From Heterotrichella gracilis (Eukaryota > Sar > Xanthophyceae > Tribonematales > Xanthonemataceae), in assembly GCA_032358255.1 (NCBI GenBank), contig JAULBX010008773.1, positions 1 to 64,000 of the forward strand: a DNA stretch of 64,000 nucleotides, in the 5' to 3' direction. Shown in pieces: positions 22,159 through 61,900 of this stretch. Made by a program: the position numbers and the translations under genes. How positions within the stretch are numbered: the first letter of the stretch is position 1; each line of letters begins with the position of its first letter. The notes beneath the pieces were generated by a model that worked only from the letters and a program-made list of their open reading frames with translations, did not search any database and was not told the DNA's origin.

Positions 22159-24439
22159 ATGGCAAGGTCTTTCGAGGTCTTCTCTGTGCCAGCCCCACCG
22201 GCAAGGTGGCTGCTGCACTTGGTGTACCTGGTGCAGGTACGTTTTCCTCCAGCCACTGACCCTTGCAGGGGGGTTTAGTGGTCATATAGTACTGCACCTG
22301 CTGCACTTTAATGGTGTACATCAATATACTGGTGGTATCAGCTGTAAGACAGTGTGAAACTACCCATATTGCCCCAGGTAGTGCAATAGTCTGTGAGGCG
22401 TTCCCAAGAAGGTGAATCAGGGTGTGAGTGTAAGGTGAATGTTTTCATACGGTCAGAAAGAACTAACCATGCAAGGGAAGGAACATCACAATCCTGTGAA
22501 TATTCCTGAACTTGTGCCACAAGTGTCGATCAGTTCCACCTGTTTAAAGATGGCAGGCACAGTGTACAGGAGGGCAATGCGTTCTCTTCGCAAACCCCAC
22601 TTCCTATTCCAGTGCTCAAAAAGTCACCAGATGCCAGGATGAGTAGGCATTTGAGGGGAGAAAGGAATAATTGCAAAACCGTCTCACTACCATATTTTGA
22701 CCCCCTGCAGGTCGGTGTTGCCCTGGCCATCCTCATCATCACCAACACCCAGCTGTACAACCACACCATATACAGCGAGAACGCCTATGGGGTGGTGGTG
22801 CCAATCGAGTGGAGCTGCCTGCTGACCTATGAGGGCATGGTGACTGCGGCGGGCGCACCAGACCCCATGCCTGGGTGCTGCATCCGCGCGCAGGTCGGGT
22901 CGGGGCTCAGCGCGGGAGGGTCCCTGGTGCTCATCGCCGGACTGGTAAGGGTTTAGGGTTTAGGGTCCTGGTGCTCTTTGCCGAGCTGGCAAGGGTTTGG
23001 GATTTTGGCTTCTGGTACTCAATACCGGCCTGGTAAGGGTTTAGGGTTCTGGGTACCCATCGCCGGACTGGTTAGGGTTTAGAATCACCCATGATGGCAA
23101 GTCAAACAGCACCGCCATTTCCGCAGCATCGAATGCACCCATTGTCCCACCCATTCACATTTCCAGATGGATACGCAAACGCATGTGTGTGCATACTGTC
23201 TAGCATGCATACCCAGGACCCTATACCCCTCAATGGAAAGCCTTCCCCCACCCGCCATCCCCCTCTGTCGCAGGCATACCTTAGCCACCCCCGCGCACCC
23301 ACCACCCTCAACAAGTGGGTGGCGGGCATCTACTGGGGCCTGCACCCGCTGGCCACCATTGGCTGGATCATCGGGGTGGGTCGCCTTGCCAACAACGTGG
23401 CCAATGCCAACAGCTGGGGGGTGGTGCCGCAGGAGGGCTACCGCAACGCAGTGGCTGGCCTGGCAGGAGCGCTGGTGAGTGGCGGGACCCAAATGTTGCA
23501 ATCTAATATAAAAGTAAAGGATTAAGTGTTCAAGTACCCCAGTGGCAGGCCTGGCTGCGGCGGGGTAGCAAGTGACCTGGAAGCTTCCACCCTGAACCCT
23601 AACCCCGCAATCCTACAAAACCCTACATAACCCCTCTTATTTCTCTTGCAGCTTGTGAATGAACAAGCTGCAAGAAGCTTACACCCTACACGTTGACACC
23701 TGAAGGCATACTGTGCTCCCCTTGCAGCTTGGCTTGTTCCTGTTCACCCCAATCGCCTTGGCGAGTGCACTGTTTAGGGTTTAGGGTTTATGATTTAGGC
23801 TGACGCACCGCTTATCCCACTTGCAGCTCGGCTTGTTCCTGCTCACCACAATCGCCTTGGCGTGTGCACTGTTTAGGGTTTAGGGTTTATGATCTAGGCT
23901 GACGCACCGCTTGTCCCAATTGCAGCTTGGCTTGTTCCTGTTCACCATCATTGCCCTGGGAGCGTGGCTGTGGCGGGGCAGCAAGGTCATTCCTGCAGGG
24001 AAGCTGCAAGGGGCATACACTGGCAACCCTACACCCTACATCCCAAACACCTCGTATTGCCCTTGCAGCTTGTGACTGGGAACTGCAATGAGCCGACACG
24101 CTACACTTTGAAGCTCAAACGCCGTTGCTGCAGATACTTACATTTTGAAGCCCAAACGCCTTTTGCTGCAGCTACTTACAGTTTGAAGCCTGATATTATT
24201 TTATTCCCTTGCAGCTTGGCTTGTTCCTGTTCACCACCATTGCCCTGGGAGCGTGGCTGTGGCGGGGCAGCACGGTGATCCCAGCTGGCAAGCTCCAGGG
24301 GGCATACACCACCACGCCAGCGTCTGGAGGGGAGGTCGGGAAGCCCTTTGCGCCCAGTGACACGTCTGGCAGCGAGGCGGGCAGCGGAGTGGGTCTTGGC
24401 CAGGGGAGGGATAGCGGGGATCTTGCCCCACATGTCTGA
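22159..24439 (+). CDS. Predicted four-helix membrane protein (245 aa), unknown function
   Basis: Four exons join in phase: 22159-22236, 22711-22944, 23274-23474 and 24215-24439 (738 bases). Four hydrophobic spans can be read: WLLHLVYLVQVGVALAILII across the first intron, GGSLVLIAGLAYL, WVAGIYWGLHPLATIGWIIG, and AGALLGLFLFTTIALGAWLW across the last intron. Between spans 1 and 2 lies a loop with two cysteines (SCLL and GCCI). The tail is Gly/Ser/Thr-rich and hydrophilic. I recognise no family. The introns are notable. The end of exon 2 with its donor is repeated three times after 22944, and the start of exon 4 with its acceptor is repeated three times before 24215. One of those (23926-24075) would itself make a complete alternative last exon ending in CPCSL. 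Confidence 0.7.
22945..23084 (+). repeat. Threefold copy of the exon 2 end plus donor, with TTTAGGG tracts
   Basis: The true exon 2 end reads GTGCTCATCGCCGGACTG then GTAAGGGTTTAGGG. Copies follow at about 22966-23000, 23010-23047 and 23048-23084, for example CCATCGCCGGACTGGTTAGG in the third. Each ends in a GG-T/C-AAGGGTTT or GGTTAGGGTTT string, so the donor site and the telomeric repeat merge into one sequence. Confidence 0.85.
23640..24214 (+). repeat. Copies of the exon 4 acceptor and start; one usable as an alternative last exon
   Basis: The string CTTGCAG|CTTGGCTTGTTCCTG recurs with its acceptor at 23721-23766, 23820-23870 and 23920-24020, before the real exon start at 24215. Shorter acceptor-only echoes lie at about 23647 and 24061. 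Tracts of GTTTAGGGTTTAGGG separate the first copies. The copy beginning at 23926 keeps the acceptor, reads FLFTIIALGAWLWRG in frame and stops at 24075, so it could replace the normal C-terminus with a shorter one. Confidence 0.8.
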
Positions 24440-26513: not shown

Positions 26514-29193
26514 TCAGCGCGCAACATAGAAGCGCACATCGTTGGGGGCCACTGACACGGGTGTGGGTGCAAAGTGGTAGGCGGACTGGCCGGGGAGGAT
26601 GCCGATATCTGCCAGGTCGGAGAAATCCAGGGAGGCAGCCTGCACAGGGGGGGAATAGGGTTTTAGAATTTAGATGTGCCAATTAGGGTTTTAAGGTTCA
26701 GGCGGGTCATTAAGGGTTTAGGTATTCGCAAGGTTGGGATACCATTGTGCAACTTGAGCACATGCATCTCGTGAAAACAATCCACAATGCAATGAATTTA
26801 TTCAGGACAACTCCCTTGCACTAAAGCACCACATGCATGCCCTGTGGTTTGCTAAGCAGCTGTATATATCCATATGGCATCAATTGTCAGGTAGGTAGCA
26901 GGCGAAGTAGAGTGCACAGCAATGTTGTTTGGACAACACCGTGCATCCAGTGCAAACTATCAAGGGTTTGGGTAATCAGTGTTTTCTAGGGTCTAGGGAT
27001 TGCGCACGCATAGTTTGCGCCCTCACCTTCTTGATGAGGAAAGTGATGTCGTCATTTGGGGATGCCAGCAGTGGGCGCACCCCCTGGGACTGGGTCCCAA
27101 ACTGGATGTTGGATGATGTAGTGGGGGCCACAATGGTCACGTTCCACACAGCTGTGGCGTTGGCATCGGCAAACAGGGGGAGCACATCGGAGATGGCGGT
27201 GGGGACCCAGGTGTCTGCCACGTAGGTGGTGGAGGGGTTCTTGGCGCCTGCGGTGGAAGGGTTTAGGTTAGGGTTTTGCTAAGGGATTTTAAAGGAAAGG
27301 CAGGTGCTCAGGTGGGGCTTAGGTGCACCTGCAAACGCACAAGCAAAGACCCGAATATGCATGGAAAAGGACAAAAGTGCACTGAACAAAACAGATTACA
27401 ATGGTAGCATCTTCCATACCCTGCAGACGTGCGCATCAATGCGCAGAGTGCAGGTGCAGGTGCAGGTGAAAGACATAGCCCCGGCACTCACTTGGGTAGG
27501 ACTGCTTGTGCAGGCCCTTGGCCTCAGTAAGGGTGTAGTTGAAGCGGTAGTGCAGGTGGGCGATGCGTGGCAGGATGTTGGTGTACTTGATGAGCTGCTT
27601 GTTAGGGCCAAGTGCGTTGGCGCCCTGGGGCTGGTAGGTGGCGGGGAAGAAGGGGTAGTCACCCACGCCTGCAAGAGAGACACGTAGCGTTTTGAGTTAG
27701 CGTGAAGGTAATAGTCTCAGGGTGCAGGCCTGTCTGCACTAATTCGAGGGCTGGTGGGAGGCGGGTAAGGTGAGGTAGCCATGAACACACGCAGGTTGGC
27801 AAATGATAAGTAGGATAGGGCAATACAGGCCATAATAGGAGTCTGGGGTAAATGCTGATGAGGGTTTTAAACCCTAAATTAGGGTCATTGCCACTATTGC
27901 CACCCACCCGAGATGATGAACTCGTTGGTCCCCCGCCACAGGGAGTGGTGTTCGTGGGGGATCCAGATGTCCAGGACATCTAGGGTCTAGGGGTCCACCC
28001 ACCTGAGATGATGAACTCGTTGTTCCCCTGCCACAGGGAGTGGTGCTCATGCGGGATCCAGATGTCAAGGTCATCGGCAGCATCCACCACCACGCAGGGG
28101 GTGTCTCCATCAATGAGGGTGGTGATGACCTGGTGGCCGTTCACAAGGTTGGTGTCGCCGATGTCAACCTGAAACGGGGAGGAAACATTTCAGGGATTTG
28201 ATTGGGCATGGGGCTTGTGCCCATTCCAACCACTTCCCCGCCAGATTCAAGTAGTGCTTGGAAGCTTCTAGGCTTTAGGGCTTACGGCTTAGGGTTAATT
28301 TTGTGCACACGCCCAAAACTCCCCGCCAGCTCTAAGTGGTACTTGATAGGCTTGAAGAAGCCCGCCGGCATCAGGTTTAGGGGATTAGGGTTCAGGGTTT
28401 GCGGCTTAGGGTTATGCACAATGCCAATGTCAACCACTCACCGCCAGCTCCAGATAGTACTTGAGGGGCTTGAAGAAGCCAGGTGGCACCTTGCCCTGGC
28501 ACACGGGGTAGTCATCGTAGTTGATCTTGGTGTCCTGGGCAAGGAACTCCGGCTCCATCCCCGCGAGGGTGGCGCAGGCGCCGTTGGGGATTTGGTCGTA
28601 CTGGCAGGCGTTTTGGGAATAGGTGAGGGAGGCGTTGGCGCCATTGGCTCCTGACCCACTCACGGTGATGCTGTTGCTGCAGGAGAAGGGGGTTCCGTCA
28701 GTGAAGGCTTGCAGCCACAGAACAGGCAAACAAACATATGTACGCATATGAGGTCAATGGTGCAACAGATGTTGGTTTAATCCAGGTGTTGAGCGAGGTC
28801 GAGACATCGACACAGCCCAAGCTTTACGGAATATTAGAATGCAGTGAACAGGCCGACGACAAGGTTGGAGGGGTGGATGTGTCGCTACAGCGCAAATACG
28901 TCATACATTCCGCCCACGAAGCATGACTGCACCCCTGTGTACACATGTGTGCGATGCAACTGCAAGCACTCCTGGTCACTTAGATCAACAATTAAGCCTC
29001 ACCCGTTGTTGTCGTTGTTGATGGCGATTGGCACGGCGATGGCGGTTGCCGTTAGCCCCACGATGGCCAGCGCAATAAGCCAGAAGGGCCACTGCTTGTA
29101 CCAGGGCTTGTCGGCCTGAGCATGGGACGACGACCCATTCGGCCGCTTAATGCCGTTCTCGATGTAGTCCTCGGCTGGGATCTTGGTCGCCAT
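26514..29193 (-). CDS. Single-anchor membrane protein of unknown function (~380 aa)
   Basis: Minus-strand exons are about 29193-29003, 28707-28442, 28168-28003, 27668-27492, 27247-27027 and 26639-26514 (TGA). All joins are in phase except exon 1 to exon 2, which is off by one. A small exon, another splice choice or a base error may therefore be missing between 29003 and 28707. The N-terminus (MATKIPAEDYIENG) is followed by one hydrophobic span, FWLIALAIVGLTATAIAVPI, which suggests a type II anchor with the rest outside or in the secretory lumen. The large domain contains CQYDQIPNGAC, DDLDIWIPHEHHSLWQG, GDYPFFPATYQP, HLHYRFNYTL and WNVTIVAPTT, with several N-x-S/T sequons. I recognise no family. 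The HEHH cluster could bind metal, but that is speculation. The gene is head-to-head with the RING gene. Confidence 0.6.
27899..27985 (-). repeat. Copy of an exon end in the following intron
   Basis: On the minus strand this repeats the last ~65 coding bases of the exon 28168-28003 (DIWIPHEHHSLW...NEFIISG), with its donor. It lies about 100 bases downstream in the same intron. Differences are few, so the copy is fairly young. An AACCCTAAATTAGGG tract follows at about 27870-27885. Confidence 0.75.
28215..28380 (-). repeat. Two decayed copies of the end of exon 2 (unknown membrane protein)
   Basis: The real exon end, around 28442-28500 (FFKPLKYYLELA), is echoed at about 28321-28378 and again, more weakly, at about 28236-28275 in the same intron. 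Telomere-like runs (GGTTTAGGGGATTAGGGTTC at about 28374 and GGCTTTAGGG at about 28270) sit between them. Divergence rises with distance from the exon. Confidence 0.7.
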
Positions 29194-30832: not shown

Positions 30833-33800
30833 ATGGTATCCACGAGTACTGGGCACACGTCAGCCCTCAAAGCACCCTGTTTACATCTCCATAGCAGCCC
30901 TCCCCTGCGCCAACAGCCAGCAGCAGTTGTTGTGATCTTGCTGGCATTCAGCCTCGGCTTGCTTTGCCCCTGTGGGTCTACTCGCACTCCGGATTGGGTG
31001 GCGGTGACAACCAGGACTGCGGGGGTGGCGGGAGACGCAACCGACACAACAGCGGCCTTGGCATCGAGCCTGAAGTCTGCATCCACCGACAGGTGAATTA
31101 TTAAGAAATAAATGAGTGAAATAGATAGAATAAAATCCATCGGCAAGTGGCTGCATTTCTTGGTTGCAGTGCTCTGACGGTGTCATTGGGTATATTGATT
31201 AAAAGCTCGAGATATGTGCCACTTTCTGCACATGGCTGCGTAATCTTTGTCATCTTTGCCAAGTGGCCGTACCACACAAATGCTCATTGTGCTCACTATA
31301 TATTGCACTAGCTGGTCATCACCTTATTGGCAGGGGGCATTTGGTATAGGCCCCCCGGTATGTTATCATTTGTGATTATTTACAGTTCTACCGTCCAGGA
31401 AGGAACCAGGGCAGGTTCATAGGACACTGATTATCTCAGTGCAAGCGCTTGTAGTATGAATGTTCATAATATAAGTATACTCAGCACAGGCGGGCGATGC
31501 TCTTCTCTTTGCCACCATTTTTCAACGCGCCTGTTCTGGCTTGCAAGTGTTTCATGTTGCTAATTCCTTTTATTTCCCCTTGCCAACAGTCCCGTCAATG
31601 CGGAGCTGCAAGCAGCAGTCCCCTCCCTTTCCGCATCAAGCTTTCCACCCACCCTACCTGGCCCCGTCCCGCCCTACCCACCCCCACCGACTTACCCCCC
31701 TCCACCCCCTCCCGCACCGCCAGTGGCGTTCTTCCTGTGCAGCTGTGCAAACTTCCCATTCCAGTTCAGCTACGCAGCGGCGCCCGACCAGCAGTCGCCC
31801 GATGGCTGCACCTGCTGCATCAATGGAACGTCGGTCACCACGTGAGTGCCGAGGGAGTGCTGGGTTGCACGCATGGGCATGTTCTCAGGCCATTGCAAAG
31901 GGGCGTAGGGGGCTACAAGCACCATAGCAGTTTGTCAAAAAAACTAAAACTGGAAATTTCAGAAATTGAGCATTTGCTCAGCAGTCCCCCGACGGCTGCA
32001 CCTGCTGTGTCAACGGGACTTTGGTGGCCACGTGAGTGCCAGGGGTGTATTATAATTGTACCTATGCAAAGTATTGAGGCATTGCTCCCTCCAATAAAAG
32101 AGAAAAAACAGGCTACTCTAAACCTGGGGATGCATCCCATTTAGCCCCCAAGCATCCAACAGCACGCCTGCCCCATGCTACCTCCTCCCCTGTGCACTAG
32201 TGTGACAATGAATATGTGACGGAATGGAGGAACATTGCAATGCATCGGGTCCACCACCCGGGCGCGCCCAGTACTGCACATTTGAGCACATTGCTATACA
32301 AACTGCTGCATTATCGTTGTTCACATCCCCTATACTTTCTCACCTACGTGCATTCCCTCTGCCCCATGCAGCACCCACGGACCTGTGTTGTGTGAGCAGT
32401 ACTCTGCCCCTGTTCAATTTTCATATTATATCTTACAAATATCAAATTACATGTAATCATTCAATCATATTTCGTCCTGCCCCATGCAGCACCCACGGCC
32501 CTGTGCTATGTGAGCGATACCTCTTCCCCGAGCGCTTCCCCCCCGATTACACCAACATCTGGACCCATTGGCTCATCTATGTGTTCATCGCAATCAGCCT
32601 GGTTGTGATGGTGGGGGGCGGTGTGGTGTGGCGGGGGGTGGCCAGGAGGAGGGCGCAGGCGGAAATGGAGGAGCGCATTTGGCGCAGGGAGCGCAGGCGC
32701 GAGGCGCAGATGGCGACAATAGGCGGTAGGTTCTCCACCCTGTACCTTTAACCCTAAACCTTTAGCAGTGGTGCAGGGGGCGGAGGCGGGAGTCGCAGAT
32801 GGTGGCAATTGGCGGTAGGTTATGTGCCCTGAACCCTTAACTCGAAACCCTAAGCAGCGGCGCAGGGATCGCACGCCCTAAATTCACTAAGAAATTTCAG
32901 ACAAGAAACCTCTTCTCCCCCCACCACAGAGCCTCCAAATCTGCTTATCTCCACCCCCCTTGCTCGCCTTGTGGGCACCCCCCTTTCCCGCCTTTGCATA
33001 TAGGACGGCACCTGCACCCGCGACAAGTGGGTGTTGCATTGAGTTGAAGGCCCCCCCATGCGCGGTCCCTCCGAATGAGTACCTTCCAATTTCTTGAACA
33101 AACGCCATTTTCCCCTCTTCTGCAGAGCCTCCAAATCTGCTCATCTCCACACCCCCTGCGCGGCTCGTGGGCACCACCCTCTCCTGCCCAATTTGCATGG
33201 AGAACCTCACATGCACCCACGACAATTGGGTGGTGCAATGCCTTTTTAAGGCCCCCCATGCCGGCTGGCGCATCCCCCCTCCAAATAAATTCCTTGTGAT
33301 AATATTAAAGTACCTTTCTCCCCCTCTGCAGAGCCTCCCAACCTGCTCATCTCCACGCCCCCTGCGCGCCTGGTGGGGACCACCCTCTCCTGCCCCATCT
33401 GTATGGAGGACCTGACCTGCACCCGCGACAACTGGGTGGTCCTCCCGCACTGCCAGCACGGCATGTGCACCACGTGTTTCCCGCAGTTGGTCAAGGCGCA
33501 GCATAGCATGCTGGCCAGGGGACGGGTGCCTCCCCGAGCAGGCCAGGTTGGGCCGGGGACAGAGGAGGAGCAAGGCTACTCTTGCCCCATGTGCAGGTGG
33601 GTGTTACCTGCAAACATCAAATGCGCCACAGTGTATTCTCTCTTGTGTGCATGCATTGTCTCGTTACCCATGGGGTGTGTTCCCGGTTTCATGTGCATTC
33701 TGGTATAACGCCATTTCCAAGCCATGAAGCATGCAATGTAAATGTATCTCTCCGTTGAACAGCTCGAATGTGCTGTGATACCTTGGTCTTCATCTTGGAT

Positions 33801-34488
33801 TTGTTGTCGTAGAGTAGTGCGCCTAATGTGGACTATTACAGTGTGTACGCAGCAAATGCTGGTAAAAACAACTGATCCATCACCTGCAGCATCATGGCAA
33901 TGCTGTAGCATTACAAGGTCAATTTGGCAGTCGCATGTCATGTAATGTGACATTATTTACCAATTCATTTCCTTGTTCATCTGCAGGGCGAACATCCAAG
34001 AGGAGGGCCAAAAGGAGTATTCCACCTGGATCTCCAGTGCAAGGTCTGGGCAGTTGGACGCCACTCGGCAACCATCGCTCCCCTTCACCGAAACACCATC
34101 CCCAACCACATCCGCAACCACGTCGTACCAAATGGGGCGCAGCCGCAGCACCCCAGCTTTGGTTTTGCAAGAATACATAGAGGCTGCAAGCAGGAGGGGC
34201 TCCGCTCAATTGCCGCCGCATTCAAGGGAGCACTCGAGGGAGCTCGTGGAGGGTGTAGTGGTACCTCCATCGCTGGCTGCGGGGCTAGGGAGAGGGGGCA
34301 GTGGGTGCTGCAGCAAGTGCAGTTGTGGACCCACGTGTGGATGTGGGTGCCAAGTGGCAGCTGCACAGGCCAGCTGCAGCGGGGATGAGGAGGCTGGTGC
34401 AGCAGATGCACAAAATTCTGACCAGGAGAGGATAGGGCAGATTTTGAGAAAGGATGATGATGGTGATGATGGCAAGGGCAGCGTGTGA
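30833..34488 (+). CDS. Membrane-bound RING-finger protein, probable E3 ubiquitin ligase (504 aa)
   Basis: Five exons join in phase: 30833-31092, 31590-31841, 32490-32725, 33332-33596 and 33987-34488 (1515 bases). A hydrophobic stretch near residues 30-47 (AVVVILLAFSLGLLC) looks like a signal or anchor. A Thr/Ala/Ser-rich part and a proline-rich segment (PPYPPPPTYPPPP) follow, then the Cys-containing CSCANFPF and CTCCINGT. A second hydrophobic span is at residues about 198-218 (LIYVFIAISLVVMVGGGVVW), then a basic/acidic charged helix. The RING has the C3HC4 spacing CPIC...CTRDNWVVLPHCQHGMCTTC...CPMCR. The C-terminal tail includes a compact GCCSKCSCGPTCGCGC cluster and an acidic end. RING proteins recruit E2 enzymes for ubiquitin transfer, and an extracellular or lumenal N-terminal domain with a cytosolic RING is inferred. 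No substrate can be deduced. Confidence 0.75.
31979..32042 (+). repeat. Copy of the end of RING-gene exon 2
   Basis: The segment GACGGCTGCACCTGCTGTGT through GTGAGTGCCAGGG repeats the last ~55 bases of exon 2 (CTCCINGTSVTT) plus donor, about 150 bases downstream of the original. The protein reading is kept with few changes. Confidence 0.75.
32360..32410 (+). repeat. Copy of the start of RING-gene exon 3
   Basis: The run CCCCATGCAGCACCCACGGA through CTGTGTTGTGTGAGC repeats the acceptor and first ~28 bases of exon 3 (real exon start 32490), about 119 bases upstream. Confidence 0.75.
32760..33330 (+). repeat. Copies of the exon 3 end and of the first half of the RING exon
   Basis: At about 32768-32820 the last bases of exon 3 with their donor (GCAGATGGTGGCAATTGGCG then GTAGG) are repeated after AACCCTAAACC. 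Two direct copies of the RING exon start then precede the true exon (33332). The first, at about 32920-33020, is degraded. The second, at 33117-33245, keeps the acceptor and reads EPPNLLISTPPARLVGTTLS and CPICMENLTCTHDNWVV. Together with the real exon these form a roughly 200-base tandem array. The second copy ends before the HCQH ligands, so using it would give an incomplete RING. Confidence 0.8.
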
Positions 34489-48791: not shown

Positions 48792-51226
48792 ATGCATGCA
48801 CTGGAAAGGCCACGTTGGCAAGTAGTGCCAGCACCGGTGCAGAATAGGGTGTTTCGTGGTGCTCCGTACCCGTATTCTACCCGAGTGGCATATACTTCTC
48901 GTCCTGTGAACCGCCCAGCAAGGTGGACAGCTCGTGCTTTTGGCCCACCAGGCACTGCCATGGGTGCCAGCAAGCCCCAGAGCCTCGCGGAGAAACGCCA
49001 GGCGCTTGAGGAGGTGTATCAAGGCTTTGTCAAAGACTTCCCTGAGGTGAAGTGCGCATGGATTTGGGGTCTTTATGCTTCTGAAGTTTGTTTTTCAGTG
49101 TGCATGCATATCCGGTTGCGCCATGGGTAGCCAATGCCCCCATGCCGTTGCATTGGCCCATACTTTTGAGACTATGACACGTTGAACACGTTGCTGTTGT
49201 CTGCCATAGAGAACATTTAGCTGTGCGAGGACACCTATCCACTGCTCTTGGGATATGGAGCTTGAGCATTGCTTGCACTAATGCGGCAAAGGGGATTGGT
49301 GTGTAGGTATGTTACACCAAGTGGCAAGGAGATATATTATTGAATACCACTGCATGCATATGCGCAACTGTGTTTGCCAGTTTCATAGGTGGGAAGGGAA
49401 CCCTTAAGCCCTAAACCCTAAACAGCAGGGACCTCCTGTCACCTCATATGCTATGGAACTGCCACCCACAGGCGGTACCCTCATCCTGGAGGAAAGCTTT
49501 TCGACCTACAAGCCTCAGAGTGCAGTCGTGTGGTGGTGTGGGCACACCCCCGATGAGCAGGCAGTGTCACGCATACCCGGCAATACCCCACGCCTCAAAA
49601 CCCTAAACCCTAAACCCTACACATTAGGGTGATTTTTTCATTTCTGAAAGTTGCCCCATGCAGGTGCCTGCCCTGACCCCCAAAGAGCTTTTGGAGCTCC
49701 AGGCCTCAGAGGGCAGCCGAGTGGTGGTGGTGGATGTGCGCACCCCCGAGGAGCAAGCGGTGTCGCGCATCCCCGGCAATACCCTACCTAGGGACGAGTT
49801 CCTGGCTCGCAAGGAGGATTTTATAGAGCACACAGTGGTGGCCTACTGGTGGGTGCGCCGGGATTGCTAGGGTTTCGGGTAGGGTTTTGGGGCATCCAGG
49901 AATGGGGGTGTCTGCTGATCCTCCTCCTTTTGTCACTGTCGTTCTGTTGGTATGTATCACTGCACCTGTACAGATTGCACTGTCTCAGCTGACACACATA
50001 TCCGGATATTGGTGATCCTTGGCCTTGAAGCGGGGGCGGTGACTTTTCAGCCCTTGGATACTTACTTCTGCGAGACCATTTCTGGCAGTTGGTGCTGCAA
50101 GGAACGATGTATTTTGTGATCAGCTGCGCAAGGAGGGTTTCACTGTCTGTCTATCGTCCGCGTGGGACCTGTTCAGGTTGCCCTTTCTCATAGTGCTGTG
50201 CAGCACCATATATGGCAGCTTATAGTCACATGCATGCGCACAAATTCCAGCCATTCAGCCACATCGGCAATTTTAACACCTCTCCCCTGCATGTTTCCTT
50301 GCAGCACTGTTGGGCGCCGCAGCGGTGTGTTTGCTGACCAGCTGCGCAAGGAGGGGTTCAAGGTGTATAACCTCAAGGGGAGCATAGTAGCATGGGTAGG
50401 GAGGAACGCACGCAACATGGGTATCAATCATCTACTGATGGTATATGTGCTAAAGCTGCATGCCCATCATCCGGCTTGAAGTGTGTGTGTAATGATCATG
50501 CTTATGATCAGGAATGGTTATAATAATAATATATGATTATAATTACGATCATGGCCATCGATCAATTGTGTAGGGTACATGTGCTGGACCTGCATGGCCA
50601 TCCTCCGGCTTGAAGTGCTTTGATCATGATTATGGTTACATTTATGATTATGGTAATGATCATGATTTATGGCGATCGTCAGGCATGAAGCATCTTTATA
50701 GGTCGCGGTACTGTTTCCAAATCTGGAGCCATAATCTGCAGCTTGTAGATCGCCACTGCTGCTGCCCCGCAAGAAAAGCGAACTACTGACAGCAGTGGGG
50801 GTTTACTGGCTCCAAATTTGGCTGTGGCATTGGAAACAGACCTGTAACTTATTTAAGAGATGTCGTAATCCTTGGTGGGGTCTGGTGAGCTGGTGTTGGA
50901 GGGGCTGGAAGAAGGGGAGGCATATGTTCCATGGTATTCATTCACCGCACAGCACTCACGTTTGTGCCTTTTGTTACAACATTGCCCAACCCCTTCTCCA
51001 ACAAACCGGTTCTCGTCTGAAGTCAGAACTCCGCCCTGAACACGCACACCGTGCGCCAACTTCTGGTTCCTCCCCTGTGCCGCAGACGCAGGAGGGTTTC
51101 CCCCTTGTGGTCGGGCCAGGCCCCTCTCCCCAGGAGACTAAGCGGGTGCATGTGTTTGGGTCCACATGGGCGCTGCAGGGGGATGGGTACGAGGCAGTCA
51201 CCTTCTCAGTGCCGCTGGTCAGGTAG
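48792..51226 (+). CDS. Single-domain rhodanese-like sulfurtransferase (223 aa, or 167 aa from the inner Met)
   Basis: Exons 48792-49046, 49664-49848, 50305-50395 and 51086-51226 join in phase. From the Met at 48960 the product is 167 aa. Starting at 48792 adds 56 residues rich in Arg, Pro, Ala and Ser with few acids (RVAYTSRPVNRPARW), which look like an organelle transit peptide. The domain shows VVVVDVRTPEEQAVSRIPGN and KEDFIEHTVVAYC. The active-site loop CTVGRRSG (Cys147 in the long form) is formed exactly across the intron, with TG before it and C after. FKVYNLKGSIVAW follows. The CxxGxR[ST] loop is the catalytic signature of rhodaneses, which carry sulfur as a Cys persulfide. The C-terminal exon is family-atypical and ends YEAVTFSVPLVR. 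Partial copies of exons 2, 3 and 4 lie in adjacent non-coding DNA. Confidence 0.8.
49470..49622 (+). repeat. Degraded copy of rhodanese exon 2 followed by a telomeric tract
   Basis: Between about 49474 and 49595 the sequence parallels exon 2 (CAAGCCTCAGAGTGCAGTCG, CCCCGATGAGCAGGCAGTGT, CACGCATACCCGGCAATACC) and then runs into AACCCTAAACCCTAAACCCT at about 49600-49619. The true exon follows at 49664. The telomeric run starts almost exactly where similarity to the exon ends. Confidence 0.85.
50080..50165 (+). repeat. Partial copy of rhodanese exon 3
   Basis: GATCAGCTGCGCAAGGAGGG followed by TTTCACTGTCT at about 50119-50148 copies the middle of exon 3 (ADQLRKEGF), about 215 bases upstream of the original. 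It is short and probably not functional. Confidence 0.65.
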
Positions 51227-51274
51227 GGGACAGGTCATCATGCTCATAATTGTAATCATAAATTTAATGTAATT

Positions 51275-51450: not shown

Positions 51451-51460
51451 GCCCTGTAAT

Positions 51461-54225: not shown

Positions 54226-54278
54226 GCGCAGCAACAGCAGCATAACCCTGACTCAGGGCTATGCTGCTGTTGCTGCGC
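54226..54278. repeat. 53-bp perfect hairpin next to dispersed repeat copy B
   Basis: Arms GCGCAGCAACAGCAGCATA (54226-54244) and TATGCTGCTGTTGCTGCGC (54260-54278) are exact complements. The 15-base loop itself contains CCCTGA-C-TCAGGG, so the stem can extend almost fully. It sits about 60-100 bases outside the dispersed repeat, comparable in place to the inverted repeat beside copy A. Confidence 0.9.
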
Positions 54279-54339
54279 ATCTTGGTGTGATCACTGTCAG
54301 CATTACGTGCACATCCCCCATGGTCTGCAGGCCACTTCC

Positions 54340-55256
54340 CCGCCAGTCGCTATCACCTACCCATACACAAGCAGCTCAGCAGCCCCCACCAAAGTCCAAA
54401 GAGCTGCACCGCTCCACAATACCAAGGCACATCCCATCATGGACGCTCCCTAAACTGCGCCGGGAGCACAGCCTTGATGGCCTCGTAGCCGAGGATGACT
54501 CTTGCTTCAAACGGGTACGCCTGCCTCGCAGCAGGCGTCAACAGGGTGCGTACTCTTGCCACCTTCCTGTCCAGCCGCTGGATGGTCCTGATGTGTGCCA
54601 GGGAATTTCCGTCTGTCACGATGCAGTCCAGCTCTGGCATCAGCTGCTCCACCCTGTAGTCCCGGGCCTGGGAAAAACGGGCGATGCTGGGATGGCCTTG
54701 GTTTTGCAGCTGCCTGAATCTTGAGCTGTTTGGGGCCCAGAACGTTTCTGTCCCACAGGCCACACTGAGGACTGCTGAGGCTGCCAAGTACAAAGGTTCC
54801 TCTGCCAAAATTGTGTTTAGCTCTGCTTGAATCGTGTTTGAGCTGGGTCACCTGTGAACCCAAGTCCCTGACCAAGTCCAGAAGAGGTGTTGGGCTCACG
54901 GGCGCCACCTCCAGCGCGTCTTCACCCACCATAACCTGGGTGAAGGCCTTGCCCAGAGACCTTGAGCTGCCCGCAACAGGCCATTCAGCAAAAACCACAG
55001 AGTGTACACTCAGGCTGCCTGGAGTGCTGGCATTATTGCTCTTGAGAGCTCCTGTCGTTGCTGCCTCCACTGTTGGTTGTGTTACTACAACCGGATAGGC
55101 TGCGTGCACTCCCCGCCCACAACCCCTGTGAACAGCTGCGCACCTCCGCCGTTGGGTGAATAACGTTTGCTCGCTGATAGAGTAAGTGCTCGTCCGCCAC
55201 CCCACTCTTCCCAAAGCAGCCAGTGAAGTTGACCCACGTAGCCCGTTGATGCTCAA
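54340..55256 (-). pseudogene. Dispersed repeat with degenerate ORF, copy B
   Basis: One minus-strand frame (55256 down to about 54840) contains QVMVGEDALEVAP and LVRDLGSQVTQLK. Another (54808-54437) contains VEQLMPELDCIV, RTIQRLDRKVARVRTLLTPA and ARVILGYEAIKAVLPAQFRE, then a stop. The order and sequence match copy A at 16400-16905. The relation of the two frames (frame break or a short intron) differs between copies. I do not recognise the protein. The heptad-like Leu/Gln/Val pattern in the VRELSSEVTQIK region hints at a coiled coil. It is most likely a member of a dispersed gene or pseudogene family. Confidence 0.5.
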
Positions 55257-55914
55257 CCGTAACGCAAGGCCTCGGCGCCCTGGCCAATACCAAAATGAAA
55301 GGAGGTATATTACTTGCTACTTGACGGAAGCCGAGATATGGGCAATTCAACAAAACCGGTTTATTTCCAGCCTACAGTCTAAGATCCAACGCGGAAGCAT
55401 GGCATATGCATGCATGCATTGTTTACAAAACCCACCTGACCAATAAAACTGCAAGGGACACCAAACGGAGAGGCAAGACGGCCAGCAAAGTTTGTCCATA
55501 TGCAAGGACAAGAAGGACCTTGTCTCAAAGGCATGGCAGGGGGTCTGTAATATATTAATAAGGATAAAAACGACACCACATGCATGCCACATCTGCATTG
55601 CAGGACAAAAGGAGACGACTGCTGCCTCGTTCCACTCTAAAGCCCGTTTCTCGCTCTTTCATTATTATTCCAGCTTGCGCACGGTAAGCAACGTGAAAGA
55701 ACGCTCTTTCGGTGTTTTGTCCACCCAAGGCATATTTTTGACTTTATGCAAGCACCGCAGCCGTTTGAAATCGACCTGCTACATACGCCTTCTTGAGTGG
55801 CATGGACTGTGCTATACTCAGTATGCAATATTGCCTTTGATGAACCGACTGGCGCCGTCGTGCACCTAGGTCTGCACCCTTGCAGAGGGTAGCGTTTGAG
55901 AAGCTGCATTTGCG
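55257..55914. promoter_or_regulatory. Upstream region of the SLC37-type transporter
   Basis: No gene is supported here. GGCATATGCATGCATGCATT lies at 55401-55420, about 500 bases ahead of the start codon, and ACATGCATGCC at about 55577. The long CATATGCATGCATGCA version matches that in the cysteine-rich gene copies and at 29987. The promoter role is inference. Confidence 0.35.
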
Positions 55915-58900
55915 ATGGCCAGGAGCACGCTGGACAGGGCAAGGAAGCAGCTGAAGCTGCAAGTACCTCCTGGTTTCCGATGCTTGGGGACCAACTGCTT
56001 GTCATACGAGGTGGGGTGCAGCAGAAAGCCTGCGACATGTCAAAGCATGGGCCACATTGGCATGTAGGCCACCCCCGCCCAATGTTGTCAACGTCTAGCT
56101 CTCCGTTCCGCATGGCTCTATAGCCTATAGTATAGGAGTGATGCACTTGCCTGTTAGCGCAATTTGTTTGGCAGGCTAGTAGACTTAAAAGGTATAACAC
56201 GTGTTCCTGGTTGCGTGGCCGGTGAAATGGCATGCAAAACATACGAAACAGTCTTCCCCTTCGAGCGCAGGCAGGCAGCAATAGCATGCTTCGGTTTCAA
56301 ATTCCACATTTCAAACCGTGCAATAGCCCATTTCTCTTTGTGTGGATGGTGTATTTCTCGGATCTGGCATCATTGGCATTGCTGGCTTCAGTGGTGGCTG
56401 CTGGCAGTCAAGCATGGCATGCTCAGGCCTTGGCCCTGTTTCCAAATTCCAGTGGTGCCCATTTATCTGTATTGAAGATATTCACAACCATAAAGCTGCA
56501 CACACCGCGATCCCTTGCTCAATTTAATGTCAACCCATTGGGCACTCTTTTCATGAGAACAGTGCGCATGTCCCACCCTATTTGGTTGAAACGGTTTATC
56601 TGCTTTTAAGTCAAGTGATACTCACTTGCTTCCATGCTGTCAAATCGACGGCCACCAGCACCAAGTGTAGGGCCACCAATGCCTACACACCACATTCGTT
56701 AGAAAACCCCCGCATCTTACTAGTTTTAATTTTGTTGAGCCACAACGACGGAGAATCGACGTTGTTGATTCCATCCCTGCAGGGCCACCAATGGCTTGTG
56801 CTGTGGCTCACCTTCTGGTGCTATACAGCATACCATGCGTCCAGAAAGCCACTCAGCATCGTCAAAAGCGTCCTCCACGGGGCCGGCAATGCCACTTTGA
56901 CTGGCGGGATGTGGACACCGCAGAATGCAGCACAGGGGCTATTTGACAGAGACAGCCACCTGGCAGCAGCGATGGGTAAGGCAGTAACAATTGAGTTCAA
57001 TGCATACATGCAGGACAGCTAGATTAGCAGTGTGTGGCAAATTAGCCTGGGCAGTTTTGCGAAGGGAGATACCAGGACAATGGTCTATTTACTGTGGGAT
57101 CAGGGAGCATCATGTGGGTGTGTACTTGTAGCAGCAAAGCTTGGGCCTTGCAGTACATTGGGGCAATGGTACGAAGGATGAGATCCACGTAACCAGGAGT
57201 ACCCCACATGCAAGCAGTCTCGAAATGTCCAGGTCAAGAGTAATAACGATAAAGAGATACACCACATCCATCACATGGAACTTGGTTCCCATACACCGCC
57301 CATTCCCGCACCCACACCGGTCCATCCAACCAATCCCACCGCTCCTGATCTGCCCCTCCAGGTGTCAACACCACGCTGCACGCCACTGCCCCGGGCTGGT
57401 ACCCCTTCAACACGCCACGTGGCCAGGGCCTGTTGGGAGACCTCGACGTGGCCTTCCTGGGGGCCTATGCCCTTGGAATGTTCTGTGCGGGCCACCTGGG
57501 CGACCGCCTCAATCTGCGCCTGTTCCTGACCTTTGGGATGGTGATGAGCGGCGTGTTTGTGGCGCTGTTTGGCATGGGCTTCTTCTGGAACGTCCACGTG
57601 GTGTGGTACTTTGTGGCGGTGCAGGTCGCGGGAGGTGCGTGGGGGTGGGGGTGGGAAGGGAATGGCGGTGGGGGTGGGGGTGGCGGTGGCTGGGAAAGGT
57701 TGTGCATGCATCTGAGAGCGTGATGCATGGACATTGGTGGAAGTACTTGTGTCTTCAGACATGCAACCACAACCGGAGGGTAATCCCCCAAATTGTAAAC
57801 CACACATGCATGCCTCACCTGCATCGAGGCTCCGGGAACTCCACCCCAGGAATTGCCTATGGTTTGTGAGGACTGTGGCAGACAGTTCATGATTCATTAA
57901 TATGATTCGTTATCTTCTGTCGCAGGTGTGTTCCAGGCCACCGGCTGGCCCAGCGTGGTATCGGTGATGGCGGAGTGGTACGGCAAGGGCAAGCGGGGGC
58001 TGGTCATGGGCCTCTGGAACTCCCATACCTCCGTGGGGAACATCCTGGGATCCCTGTTCGCGGCGCGCATGCTCTCCCTGGGATGGGGCTGGTCCTTTGT
58101 GGTCCCCGCAGCGGTCATGATCACCATGGGGCTGATCATGTTCCTGTTCCTGGTGGTGGAGCCAAAGCATGTGGGTATATTAGAAAGTATTGCATATGCT
58201 TAAATTCATTTGTCCGGGGATGCAATGCCTTGCCTGCTAATTTACTTGAAAGCTGGCACGCGTATCTGGCTCCAAAGCTGGAATGCACTTACTTCTGCAG
58301 ATGTTTTGCCCCGGGAGTTGTCCTTCTGGGTTTTTAGCCCCTTGGACCAGAAATGCGTTTAATATATGGTATATTGATCTGTGTTGTGTGCCGTCATTCC
58401 TGTCTTGCTGTGTGGACCTCGTAAACTGACTGGGAAGTTCACCCCTTCCCCTAGGTGGGGCTGAAGCCGCCAGACCAGCGAGCAAAGATGTCTGGGGCCA
58501 ACTAGGGCGCCACCCTAAACCCTTAACACCCTAAACCCTAAACCCTAAACAGGAATTGACCACTTTCTGTAGGTGGGGCTGAAGCCGCCAGACCAGCGTG
58601 TGAAGGCGTCTGGGACCAACTCAGGTGCCACCAGCGGCTACTCCACACCCCAGACAGGGGTGTCGGGGGTCAGCCAGGCCTCCCTGGATGAAGCCATGCG
58701 GGTGAGGCACGGGGTCTTGAGGTTGCAGGACTACTCGGGGGGCTAGCATGCAGAACGATACTCACTGCAACATTGTGCAATGGTTTTGTTGCGTGACAAT
58801 GCTCCCCCTCCCTTGCAGCTATTCTCAGCTAATATGCAGCAAGAATTCTCAGACGTCACTGATGCATGCTCATGGCGCTGCTCTTGCTGCAAACATTGCA

Positions 58901-61900
58901 CAAAACTCCGTTTTTTGCTGATGCGTGCCAATGCTCCTCCTCCCTTGCAGCTATACGTATTCAATGTGCAGGAAAAATGCTCGGATGCCACTGACGCATG
59001 CTCATGGCGCTGCTCTCGCTGCAACATCACACTGCACTTTTCTTTCTGCTGATGCGTGCCATTCTTCCCCCCCTCGCCTGCAGCTATACGTTGCCCGCCA
59101 CACGCGGCACCCCCCCGGCCACCCGCACCACCACAAGTCAGCTCATGATGCATTCCAATGGCGCCACTCTCACTGCAACAACACGCTGCATTTGTCTGTT
59201 TTTGACGCGTGACAATGCTCCCCTCCCCTGCAGCTATATGTAGCCCGCCACACGCGGCACCCCCCCGGCCACCCGCACCACCACAACATTGTGGGCCTCT
59301 CCAGCGCGCTGTTCCTGCAAGACCTGGTCAACCTGGAGCCAACCCGGGAGACGCTGGACCACGAGCCACACAGGGTACGCCACATGTCACAGCGTTGTGG
59401 ACGTTGGTCAATTAGGCTAGGGTGTGTAGGGTTTAGGGAACGAAATAGGTCTATGGTGTTGAGGGTTTGAGGGAGGAAATGGGGTTCATTACAGCCATGC
59501 CTTCATCCACAGCCACGATTCTGCAGGCCACTCGTGGATATTTGGGGTGGACCAACTATTTGTACTGGTGGCAATCACATATCTCAGAGCTTCTGGTGAT
59601 TGCCGCCATGACACCAATTGGGGTGGCATATGGTATCTGTGCTTCAAAGGGGGTGATCATTTGCACCGCAAGGGCCATGCTGGTGTAGCTGGTATTTCAT
59701 GATGGCAATTGCTGGCGCTCTTACAGATAGGTAGTGAGATAGATAGGTATCGTCATGAGGGCATCGCTCTTGTATCATGCGCCCATCTGCAATGCTATTG
59801 GGGTTGTGATCTTGCATGCCGCCGCTGTTATCTGACAGTTTCCGGTGCTGTGCAGGGCGTGTCCTTTGCCGCCGCGTGGGCCATCCCCGGGGTTGCAGTG
59901 TTCAGCTTCACGCTGTTCTTCTCCAAGCTGGTGGCATACACCTTCCTGTACTGGCTGCCATACTACATTCACACCGTCACCATCGGAGGCAGGACGCTCA
60001 CGCCAGAGGTGGGTCATATGAAAACGCAACATGATTTTGAGCTGTTCTATATGCGTGGACTTGAACCCACAAGAAGCACAATTCTGTTGCACCATGATTA
60101 CAGCTGCACACGTGTTCTGGCAGCCCTACTGCATACACACTGTCACCAGGGGGGTAGGACACTCACACCAGAGGTGGGTGCAAATGTGTGCAACATTTTG
60201 GGTTGTCCTACATGGCAAGGCATGCTGTGACCTGTTTGTGTCATTTGCCACCCTCACCATGCCGTCCCTCAGCTGGAGGGTTTAGGGTTTTGCAGTCCAA
60301 TTGCAACCAGCGTGTGCATGTAGCCTCTCGGCATGGCGCAGTGCTACCGTATGTACTGCCAGGTGGCGGTAGCTAACATGCATGTATGCAACTTCTGTAC
60401 AGGAATCCGGCAACCTGTCGTAATACCATGGTGCAGCCCAGCGCAACGCACACAAGATGCACCCAATGCAAGCAATCAAGCTGGTGGCATGTGTAGTAAC
60501 ATGCATGTCTGTGTCCTTGCCGCAGGAATCCGGCAACCTGTCCATCCTCTTTGACCTGGGCGGCGTGCTGGGTGGCGCCCTGGCGGGGCGCCTCTCAGAC
60601 ATCAGCGGGGCCAACGCCATCGTGTCATGCAGCTTTGTGGCGGCCGCCATCCCCGCGCTGTTCCTGTACCGCACCTACGGACACGTGTCCATGGCGCTCA
60701 ACGTCGGGCTCATGATGGTCAGCGGATTCTTTGTCAACGGGCCATATGCGCTCATCACCACGGCGGTGTCGGCGGACCTGGGCACGCACTCGAGCCTGGC
60801 AGGTGGGTGCACATTAGCACTTGAAAGACGGAAAGTTGGATGTTTGGGTGAGGGTGTAGTGGGAAGAGGGGATATGTGCAAACCACTGCAGTGGTGTTGG
60901 CGAATCTTGGCAGGCAAGACAGCCTTGCACTTGGGTGGCGCTGGATGGGGAGGGGAGTGCCCTTCTCCTGGGAGTGGTATTGGGGAGAACACTTTCCACA
61001 TGCAGGCTACAAACACAGCCCTGAACACTCCCGCCACCACCTTGTGCCGCATAGGTATCGTATGCGCAATCCTTGTCTACCCGCACCAAGGGGTGTACAA
61101 GCCGTCAACTCCACACCCATGCCACTGTGCAGGGTTTTAGTCACAGCAGCCAGAGTAGCCGTCAGTTTTGCAAGTATATATGTAGTATCAAATAATCCTT
61201 ATTCAATATAAGTAAATAAGGAATTAAATAAAAAAAAACAAAAGAATAAGACAGTTGTCCTTATGTTTAAATGATCATTTACTTACTTGATCAAACAAAT
61301 AAAATGACTTATCACCGCAGGGAACGAGAAGGCGCTGGCCACAGTGACTGCCATCATCGATGGCATGGGCTCCCTGGGGGCTGCGCTGGGGCCGCTGCTC
61401 ACGGGGTACATATCGGTGCTGCCGGGGGGCTTTGACAATGTTTTTGCAATGCTGTACATCTCGGCTCTGTCGGGGGCGATGCTGCTCAGTGGGCTGGTGG
61501 TCAAGGAGGTGCGCTGGGGGACCGATAGCACATGGCTGAAACCCTAAAGCCTGGACCCTAACCTTAACGCACCCTGCGCTCAATTGCTACAACTGCCGAT
61601 GTTCCTTGGTATCCCATGTGCTGTCCTTGCCTTGGCTGGTCCGCCAACGCACACAGTTGTGCCTGACTTGACATTAGTTGATCTGCCGTGAGACATGCAC
61701 TGACATGGTATAATGTGGCATGACCCAACCTAATGGCTTGATGTTGCTGTGTGGGCCAAGGCAATACCATGGCCATGCGTGGTTCGCAATAGCAGTGCCA
61801 TGCCCATGTGCGCTTCTTGTCTGCGCTGCTCTGGAGAATATACTATTATTGATTAGTCCGTCGTATAGGTTCGATTAAATTCATCCACTTTCCCCCCTAA

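What the first reader, a model, noticed from the sequence alone, without database searches (positions are those of the whole stretch)
22921..60425. Genome-style pattern: exon edges with their splice sites copied repeatedly into the adjoining intron, interleaved with telomeric repeats
At least twenty exon edges in seven unrelated genes have one to four direct copies in the neighbouring intron. Exon-end copies lie downstream of the exon and exon-start copies lie upstream, always on the same strand and usually 40-250 bases away. The copies nearly always include the splice dinucleotides. TTTAGGG or CCCTAAA tracts commonly lie between copies. Copies tend to be worse with distance, as if added in succession. 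Seen directly: the copies and tracts. Inference: a recurrent process, such as local break repair with template switching plus telomerase or telomeric-template patching, that lengthens introns from their edges. I know of tandem-duplication intron gain and of interstitial telomeric repeats separately, but not of this combination as a described system.
Basis: partly seen in the sequence, partly recalled or inferred. Interest (0 to 1): 0.85.

Follow-up and report, generated by a model that had tools for sequence, protein, structure and literature searches.

The report
Exon edges copied into neighbouring introns
In this eukaryotic, probably algal, DNA many introns contain worn copies of the edge of the adjoining exon, often joined on by scraps of telomere repeat, which look like scars of break repair that lengthen introns from their edges.

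Summary
I modelled 41 GT-AG introns in seven genes; 30 of 82 exon edges (25 introns, six genes) have a direct copy in their own intron, against 0 of 82 reverse-complement, 0 of 3144 intron-swap and 0 of 1640 shuffle controls. Independent intron-only duplications are nearly absent (one), although ones of equal age would mostly be detectable. Telomere-type tracts lie within 12 nt of the exon-internal end of the copy in 10 of 30 cases (1.7 expected, P 4.5e-6), of its splice-side end in 1 of 30. So each copy seems to have one real joint, inside exon sequence, often with telomeric filler. Copies differ from their exon mainly at third codon positions (ratio 2.77, CI 2.0-3.8; about 1.6 predicted for a neutral copy of the same exon), yet some carry stops and frameshifts. 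Best reading: intron breaks repaired by copying from a diverged homologue, overshooting into the next exon, then end-joined. Plain own-locus tandem duplication is a close rival. The components are known; nine paper searches did not show the combination. Not supported: worsening with distance, tract polarity. Absent from a neighbouring paralogue array (0 of 16 edges).

The parts
22711..24439 (+). Gene MEM (membrane protein by eye, no Pfam family), exons 22711-22944, 23274-23474, 24215-24439 modelled
   Evidence: gene model with open joins; Pfam none
26514..29193 (-). Gene SECR (one N-terminal hydrophobic segment by eye, no Pfam family), 6 exons
31765..33908 (+). Gene RING (weak RING finger match, below Pfam's cut-off), 4 exons modelled
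35819..46884 (-). Copper-transporting P1B ATPase, 21 exons and 20 introns modelled; best match among solved structures is an HMA4
48960..51226 (+). Rhodanese-domain gene, 4 exons modelled
57362..61547 (+). MFS transporter gene, 7 exons modelled
18834..20650 (+). GT8 glycosyltransferase gene, 3 exons modelled, no edge copies
22962..23082 (+). MEM intron 1: three donor-edge copies in a 44-bp-period array with TTTAGGG tracts
23717..23983 (+). MEM intron 2: acceptor-edge copies in a 99-bp array (2.3 units) and a copy at 23914-23983 (67 of 68 aligned positions identical)
28318..28370 (-). SECR intron 2 donor-edge copy
27900..27967 (-). SECR intron 3 donor-edge copy; 14-nt telomere-like stretch between it and the edge (under score 20, not counted)
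27748..27781 (-). SECR intron 3 acceptor-side copy (weak)
31979..32040 (+). RING intron 1 donor-edge copy
32360..32410 (+). RING intron 1 acceptor-edge copy
32769..32821 (+). RING intron 2 donor-edge copy (89-bp tandem)
33119..33185 (+). RING intron 2 acceptor-edge copy; a second copy lies further upstream
46645..46695 (-). ATPase intron 1 donor-edge copy (best of three)
45940..45961 (-). ATPase intron 2 acceptor-side copy
43595..43616 (-). ATPase intron 7 acceptor-edge copy
43052..43118 (-). ATPase intron 8 donor-edge copy
42770..42820 (-). ATPase intron 8 acceptor-side copy, 50 of 51 identical, no similarity found in the flanks
42272..42332 (-). ATPase intron 9 donor-edge copy
41529..41592 (-). 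ATPase intron 10 acceptor-edge copy
41197..41262 (-). ATPase intron 11 donor-edge copy
40419..40487 (-). ATPase intron 12 donor-edge copy (further of two)
39725..39795 (-). ATPase intron 13 acceptor-edge copy
39323..39360 (-). ATPase intron 14 acceptor-edge copy
39052..39089 (-). ATPase intron 15 donor-edge copy
37299..37346 (-). ATPase intron 18 acceptor-edge copy (one of up to four, weak ones counted)
36639..36701 (-). ATPase intron 19 acceptor-edge copy
49495..49532 (+). Rhodanese intron 1 acceptor-side copy
50105..50142 (+). Rhodanese intron 2 acceptor-side copy
58452..58514 (+). MFS intron 2 acceptor-edge copy
59072..59136 (+). MFS intron 3 acceptor-edge copy (array, period about 132 bp)
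60117..60186 (+). MFS intron 5 donor-edge copy
60400..60419 (+). MFS intron 5 acceptor-edge copy
60872..60937 (+). MFS intron 6 donor-edge copy (weak)
58512..58550 (+). (CCCTAAA)n tract filling the gap between the MFS intron 2 copy and the native acceptor region
28374..28413 (.). Telomeric tract at the joint of the SECR intron 2 copy
32737..32760 (.). Telomeric tract 8 nt from the joint of the RING intron 2 donor copy
46694..46723 (.). Telomeric tract at the joint of the ATPase intron 1 copy
43177..43192 (.). Telomeric tract 11 nt from the joint of the ATPase intron 8 donor copy
40529..40562 (.). Telomeric tract at the joint of the ATPase intron 12 copy
39094..39118 (.). Telomeric tract at the joint of the ATPase intron 15 copy
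37256..37294 (.). Telomeric tract at the joint of the ATPase intron 18 copy
49598..49622 (.). Telomeric tract 6 nt from the joint of the rhodanese intron 1 copy
24025..24052 (.). Telomeric tract at the joint of the MEM intron 2 copy

Best explanation
Many of the exon-edge copies are scars of breaks in introns that were repaired by copying from a homologous version of the gene (another allele, or a duplicate) whose exons still match but whose introns have diverged. One broken end is extended across the foreign intron until it reaches the next exon, the next block similar enough to pair with; it overshoots roughly 10-125 nt into that exon, fails to anneal to the other end, and the two ends are joined directly, often after telomere repeats have been added. 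The result is an exon edge with its splice site left in the intron on the correct side, one joint inside exon sequence, telomeric filler at that joint, and a longer intron. Short tandem arrays (MEM1, MEM2, MFS3, RING2) would be later duplications of such units. Shown here: the copies, the tract at one end of them, the edge bias, the third-position excess, acceptor-like context of the copies, decay of some copies. Inferred: the break, the diverged homologue, strand extension and end-joining, any role of telomerase.
For: 30 of 82 edges, zero in three controls. 36 of 43 local pairs have a member at or in an exon edge; of the 7 intron-only pairs five link (partly weak) copies of one edge, one is a microsatellite, one (RHOD3) is independent; 0 inverted, 0 exon-exon. 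Intron-only duplications of the ages of 29 edge pairs would be detected with mean probability 0.89 or 0.72. Tract at the exon-internal end 10 of 30 (P 4.5e-6 against points in the same introns), at the splice-side end 1 of 30. Third- to first/second-position difference ratio 2.77 (CI 2.00-3.84) over 29 pairs; simulated neutral copies of the own exon give 1.54-1.64, with 0.2-0.3 extra coding divergence 2.52-2.80. Between intronic copies of the same edge third positions also lead (15, 13 and 26 differences at 126, 123 and 124 sites). pN/pS 0.24 over 31 pairs, with 3 stops and 10 indels in exon-derived sequence. Upstream of 16 copied acceptors (12 containing the edge, 4 extrapolated) pyrimidine is 0.666, working acceptors 0.673, random intron 0.515; in 9 of the 16 the flank does not rank first or second against its own working acceptor. 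A published route makes such a product: end-joining of failed SDSA intermediates duplicates the copied stretch (PMC8654963, section 12).
Against: No second allele or relative is available, so the diverged homologue is inferred. In 16 of 29 pairs the copy's intron flank ranks first or second against its own native flank, which fits own-locus duplication with decay, and in several acceptor pairs part of the pyrimidine tract lies within the aligned stretch, so its retention there may be by descent. The contrast between pairs with and without a matching flank depends on the definition (ratios 1.71 and 3.24, permutation P 0.048; or 3.09 and 2.48, P 0.73). Some arrays are plain tandem repeats. 20 of 30 joints have no tract within 12 nt, and introns with copies are not significantly more often tract-bearing (15 of 25 against 5 of 16, P 0.11). 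The paralogue array, with homologues next door and introns that hardly align, shows none (0 of 16 edges).
Confidence: 0.4

Rival explanations
1. Ordinary small tandem duplication of the gene's own DNA: staggered nicks or a break with 3' overhangs near an exon edge, fill-in of both ends (CST-Pol alpha or similar), end-joining with telomeric filler. Only events across an edge that keep the outer splice site survive; intron parts then decay faster than exon parts.
For: Direct, adjacent, tract at one end only; several full-period arrays; intron flank of the copy ranks 1-2 against its own native flank in 16 of 29 pairs; in the 9 pairs with a long aligned intron part or array the third-position ratio is 1.71, as predicted; a known reaction with a telomere-linked complex (PMC8355091).
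Against: By my arithmetic it predicts about ten or more detectable intron-only duplications; one independent case is seen. Third-position excess over all pairs exceeds the neutral prediction. Young pairs lack the expected intron homology (ATPase8A, ATPase9D, ATPase10A).
Confidence: 0.37
2. Copies are kept or shaped by selection, for example as alternative or decoy splice sites or alternative exons, which would explain third-position bias and retained splice signals.
For: Third-position excess, pyrimidine tracts, splice dinucleotide within 25 of 30 copies, few stops (3 in 560 codons).
Against: Copies are fragments cut inside the exon, with frameshifts or stops in some; use of a copy would add out-of-context sequence; the numbers of stops and indels look about neutral for the number of first- and second-position changes (my estimate).
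Confidence: 0.08
3. Haplotype-chimera assembly artefact: contigs of two divergent haplotypes mis-joined so that an exon edge appears twice.
For: Coding-like divergence between copy and exon and gaps without a counterpart.
Against: Some copies carry stops and frameshifts while the modelled exons read open; telomeric filler at joints; edges with several copies; no N in 64 kb.
Confidence: 0.08
4. Templated copying of exon-edge fragments into telomeric tracts already present in introns (capture of nearby DNA, two joints).
For: Copies are local; capture of proximal DNA is known in primates (PMC2671141, passages).
Against: Tracts mark one side of the copy (10 of 30 against 1 of 30); all local pairs in the gene segments are direct; copied acceptors bring a pyrimidine tract.
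Confidence: 0.07

Closest known systems
Tandem duplications from end-joining of failed SDSA intermediates (HELQ-deficient C. elegans; PMC8654963, passages and section 12 read)
   Same: Direct duplication of the stretch copied during strand synthesis, one joint, occasional templated inserts
   Different: There about 100 bp-10 kb (median about 1 kb) with a sister template; no exon-edge preference or telomeric filler in the parts I read
Small tandem duplications from CST-guided Pol alpha-primase fill-in (PMC8355091, abstract and passages read); patch-mediated tandem duplications in rice (Vaughn and Bennetzen 2014, known from its citation there and recall)
   Same: Short direct duplications at break ends; a telomere-maintenance complex is involved
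   Different: Own-chromosome template; no telomere repeats added and no edge bias in the passages I read
Short interstitial telomeric sequences inserted at breaks (PMC7215372, passages read)
   Same: Short telomeric arrays placed at break sites, sometimes with duplications (3 of 66 horse loci, and 2 more together with other changes)
   Different: There the share in human introns fits random insertion and duplications are a minority; here tracts mark joints of exon-edge copies
[quoted passage not shown]
   Same: Local duplications of similar length (mean 162 bp), splice sites sometimes included
   Different: There duplicates within 50 bp were left out, an exon copy could be inverted, and 8 of 824 donors contained exon sequence by my sum of its Table 2; here all direct and nearly all edge-anchored
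Intron gain by tandem duplication of exon sequence with AG/GY sites (PMC2891723 passages; PMC4974935 search listing only)
   Same: Tandem duplication of exon sequence ends up inside an intron
   Different: Those make a new intron; here introns carry copies of one or both of their own edges

Membership tests
Small end-joining tandem duplication | Adjacent direct copies with a single joint | tested here: met
   all local pairs direct; tract at one end only, 10 of 30 against 1 of 30, which is indirect evidence for one joint
Small end-joining tandem duplication | Homology runs through the whole period apart from filler | tested here: inconclusive
   met in arrays and short-gap pairs; 23 of 28 gaps tested show no similarity at P 0.01
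Small end-joining tandem duplication | Template is the same chromosome (neutral copy of own exon) | tested here: inconclusive
   third-position ratio 2.77 against about 1.6 predicted; flank rank 1-2 in 16 of 29
Failed-SDSA tandem duplication (TMEJ) | Duplication equals the stretch copied from a homologue | tested here: inconclusive
   consistent; no second allele
Failed-SDSA tandem duplication (TMEJ) | Dependence on Pol theta and suppression by HELQ | not testable with these tools
   needs mutants
Short interstitial telomeric sequence | Internal short telomere-repeat arrays well above chance | tested here: met
   42 tracts against 0 in three shuffles and 1-4 for permuted units
Short interstitial telomeric sequence | Placed at a repaired break | tested here: inconclusive
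   within 12 nt of 10 of 30 presumed joints, P 4.5e-6; the break itself is inferred
Short interstitial telomeric sequence | Empty orthologous locus in relatives | not testable with these tools
   no whole genome held; introns of the paralogues mostly do not align
Repair-mediated duplication (proximal capture) | Insert of nearby DNA with a joint on each side | tested here: inconclusive
   tract marks one side only, indirect
Repair-mediated duplication (proximal capture) | Copies in either orientation | tested here: not met
   0 inverted beside 43 direct local pairs
Introner elements | Same sequence in many introns | tested here: not met
   for the copies: 0 of 3144 swaps reach the threshold
Intron gain by tandem duplication | Whole intron is a duplicated exon stretch between AG/GT sites | tested here: not met
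   copies fill part of introns, next to one edge each

The most novel reading that the evidence does not exclude
In this lineage introns are rewritten by a self-reinforcing process: breaks in introns are repaired off alleles whose introns no longer match, synthesis runs on to the next exon, the ends are healed with telomere repeats and joined, and every such event makes the introns of alleles still more different, so that exons become the only islands where homologous repair can anchor. Intron length and sequence turnover would then be driven by repair geometry and telomerase rather than by transposons.
Probability: 0.25. Interest if true: 0.82.

Novelty: new variant of a known kind. Interest (0 to 1): 0.62.

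Why it matters
How introns grow and why intron sequence turns over so fast is an open question often answered with transposons. Here 25 of 41 modelled introns carry what look like repair scars with a legible joint, so one genome with two haplotypes could show directly whether introns lengthen through aborted homologous repair and whether telomerase acts at internal breaks in a germ line. It also warns gene finders: copies carry convincing splice sites and reading frames, and one was taken as an exon by my own gene finder.

Tried and rejected
Polarity idea: I expected TTTAGGG on the sense strand at donors and CCCTAAA at acceptors, as if telomerase extended both ends. Not supported: 25 C-rich and 14 G-rich sense tracts, both kinds near donors. 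The C-rich lean (P 0.11) may reflect that TTTAG|G in sense would be a cryptic acceptor (inference).

Decay with distance: not supported (7 of 14 multi-copy edges, counted by me).

Two source classes: the split into own-locus and foreign copies is definition-dependent, so I claim only the overall third-position excess.

Empty-site test on the tandem paralogues at 1-12 kb: exons align, introns mostly do not; no insertion could be polarised.

Related DNA: a 207-aa MFS query found no relative in viral contigs.

Gene models: the first gene-finder settings gave nonsense. The second was curated by hand: one GT8-MEM fusion split, two false upstream RING exons dropped, one copy called as an ATPase exon removed, one ATPase donor and two further ATPase exon ends moved, a 4-nt exon replaced by a longer one, two upstream ATPase exons added, rhodanese exons reset and one added, the first MFS exon dropped and the next one shortened. 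I had seen the repeats when I did this.

Rows dropped: the SECR3 acceptor copy (weak) is but not in the pair sets and the class test; extra copies of one edge were used only; for RING2 and MFS3 acceptors searches use a nearer copy than (one search uses both for RING2).

Literature: nine searches; the query asking for telomeric repeats, tandem duplications, introns, telomerase, double-strand break repair and exon together returned 0 papers. PMC13123843 (passages) and PMC11782384 (abstract and outline) proved marginal.

Full report
What was checked. The window holds spliced genes with GT-AG introns, so it is eukaryotic; no whole genome is held for it, and no tRNA or Rfam family at gathering score was found. 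The TTTAGGG repeat (plant and green-algal type, recalled) and a copper ATPase whose best match among solved structures is an HMA4 (from rice, recalled) suggest a green alga or plant relative; the species is unknown. I built gene models from codon bias and splice signals, compared products with Pfam and, for the ATPase, solved structures, and curated by hand 41 introns in seven genes, all GT-AG, 141-740 nt, 17,340 nt in all, with open reading frames across every join. Twenty introns belong to the ATPase. The curation was done after I had seen the repeats.

Observation. For each of the 82 exon edges I compared up to 60 nt of exon plus 12 nt of intron with the rest of its own intron. 30 edges reach a local alignment score of 32 or more; none of 82 reverse-complement comparisons, 3144 comparisons with other introns or 1640 shuffles does. 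Affected introns: MEM 2 of 2, SECR 2 of 5, RING 2 of 3, rhodanese 2 of 3, MFS 4 of 6, ATPase 13 of 20, GT8 0 of 2, in all 25 of 41; a looser threshold of 24 adds one MFS intron. 25 of 30 best copies contain the splice dinucleotide. As a control in the same window, 16 edges of a three-copy paralogue array at 1-12 kb, tested against about 500 nt of neighbouring sequence, have no copy; 0 of 16 against 30 of 82 has a probability of about 0.002 (my arithmetic). Those exons are probably less conserved, so copies there would fade faster; still, it counts against a uniform process.

Edge bias. BLAST of exon-intron-exon segments gave 36 pairs with a member at or in an exon edge and 7 intron-only pairs. 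Five of the seven link copies, some weak, of the same edge (MEM2, ATPase18), one is a microsatellite, one (RHOD3) is independent. There were no inverted and no exon-exon pairs. Because an intron-only duplication decays on both sides, I simulated ones of the age of each of 29 edge pairs: mean detection probability is 0.89 or 0.72 depending on the rate assumed. Random tandem duplication with periods of 75-200 nt in introns of about 420 nt should give about 3.3 to 0.6 intron-only events per edge-crossing one (my arithmetic), so about ten or more detectable ones would be expected and one is seen. This is a main argument that exons take part in the mechanism.

Anatomy of a copy. Over 29 pairs the aligned part reaches 9-124 nt into the exon; its intron part is 21 nt or less in 21 of 29, four of these not reaching the splice point at all. 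The gap between the copy and the native edge ranges from none to 278 nt; the longest gaps contain further copies. 23 of 28 gaps tested show no similarity at P 0.01 to the other side of the copy; this includes ATPase8A, whose aligned exon part is 50 of 51 identical. Others are plain tandem arrays (periods 44, 99, 89 and about 132 bp).

Telomeric tracts. 42 tracts of TTTAGGG or CCCTAAA type score 24 or more, against none in three shuffles and 1-4 for six permuted units; density is 1.79 per kb in the modelled introns, 0 in exons, 0.29 elsewhere. Using tracts scoring 20 or more (52, against 0-2 in shuffles and 5-11 for permuted units), 10 of 30 copies have one within 12 nt of their exon-internal end, where 5.8% of points in the same introns would (P 4.5e-6); at the splice-side end it is 1 of 30. 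In MFS2 the whole 37-nt gap is telomeric. So the exon-internal end behaves like a true joint and the splice-side end like the place where similarity merely stops. That speaks, indirectly, for one joint per copy. 20 joints have no such tract, so filler is frequent, not obligatory. At intron level the link is weak (15 of 25 against 5 of 16, P 0.11).

Where the copied sequence came from. If a copy were the gene's own exon edge turned neutral, differences at third codon positions should exceed those at first and second positions about 1.6-fold. I find 2.77-fold over 29 pairs (46, 50 and 133 differences at 542, 539 and 540 sites), bootstrap interval 2.00-3.84. Over 31 pairs (two edges counted twice) pN/pS is 0.24. 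Base composition does not explain it: rates at first and second positions are alike for G/C and A/T, and third-position rates are higher at A/T. An additional 0.2-0.3 of coding divergence reproduces the ratio. Intronic copies of the same edge also differ from each other most at third positions (15, 13, 26). Yet copies are not coding now: 3 stops in 560 codons and 10 indels in exon-derived sequence. The simplest reading is that the copied sequence came from a diverged coding version of the gene and decayed afterwards. In agreement, the region upstream of 16 copied acceptors (12 containing the edge, 4 extrapolated) is as pyrimidine-rich as at working acceptors (0.666 and 0.673; random intron 0.515), although in 9 of the 16 it does not rank first or second in similarity to its own working acceptor. 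Against it: 16 of 29 pairs do show a related flank by rank (7 of 16 acceptors, 9 of 13 donors); in several pairs part of the pyrimidine tract lies within the aligned stretch; and my attempt to split pairs into own-locus and foreign classes gave opposite answers under two definitions. The template question therefore stays open, and I put own-locus duplication almost level.

Mechanism. Kamp and colleagues describe tandem duplications made when an end extended in SDSA fails to anneal and is joined directly, duplicating the copied stretch (PMC8654963, section 12 read). If introns of the template no longer match, an extended end finds nothing to anneal to until it has copied into the next exon. Direct joining at that moment leaves what is seen: foreign intron end, foreign exon edge, joint, remaining native intron, native exon, and the mirror image for donors. 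Telomere repeats at the joint fit telomerase acting on broken ends, proposed for interstitial telomeric sequences in mammals (PMC7215372, passages). CST, a telomere complex, also makes small tandem duplications at breaks (PMC8355091, abstract and passages), which makes an own-chromosome version a serious rival. Shown: copies, tract at one end, edge bias, divergence pattern, decay. Inferred: break in the intron, template, telomerase, joining enzyme.

Assembly artefact. Chimeric joining of two haplotypes would explain coding-like divergence but not stops and frameshifts in copies beside intact exons, telomeric filler or multi-copy edges. I rate it low, but it cannot be excluded without reads.

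Novelty. The components are in print; nine searches of the open-access library listed no paper that I recognised as describing exon-edge copies joined by telomeric filler, and most subscription papers are not held. I file it as a new variant of known repair-made tandem duplications. The sample is one 64-kb window, so 'genome-style' remains an extrapolation. On rechecking, the number of pairs with a related flank rose from 15 to 16 and the expected number of intron-only events fell; I moved the confidence of the best reading from 0.42 to 0.40, that of own-locus duplication from 0.36 to 0.37, and that of an assembly artefact from 0.07 to 0.08.

Noticed in passing
1-12100: Array of three tandem paralogues (unit about 4.5-5.7 kb) of a cysteine-rich protein; longer aligned stretches are 72-91% alike, introns mostly do not align; no exon-edge copies at 16 edges tested.
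   Followed up: partly
51464-52717: Satellite of 9.5 copies of a 133-bp unit whose consensus holds an inverted repeat around ACCAAAAGGGGCTAGTA.
   Followed up: no
16300-16912 and 54336-54938: Dispersed direct pair, 70.5% over 628 bp, each with a similar short coding-like stretch on the minus strand; no Pfam match for the one tested.
   Followed up: no
12664-12805: Outside the modelled genes: a 47-bp direct repeat pair with a TTTAGGG tract (12708-12736) between the copies, the same anatomy as in the introns.
   Followed up: no
45250-45341 and 57639-57689: Hexamer microsatellites ATGGGG and GTGGGG beside splice sites of ATPase intron 3 (acceptor) and MFS intron 1 (donor).
   Followed up: no
L001-L009: IMG/VR contigs with CCCTAAA arrays of at least 4 and up to 12 or more units; L006 and L007 show a similar layout of repeats around the array.
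   Followed up: no
46387-46884 (minus strand): The first modelled ATPase exon (start of an HMA domain, by eye) has three worn copies in ATPase intron 1, separated by CCCTAAA-type tracts.
   Followed up: partly
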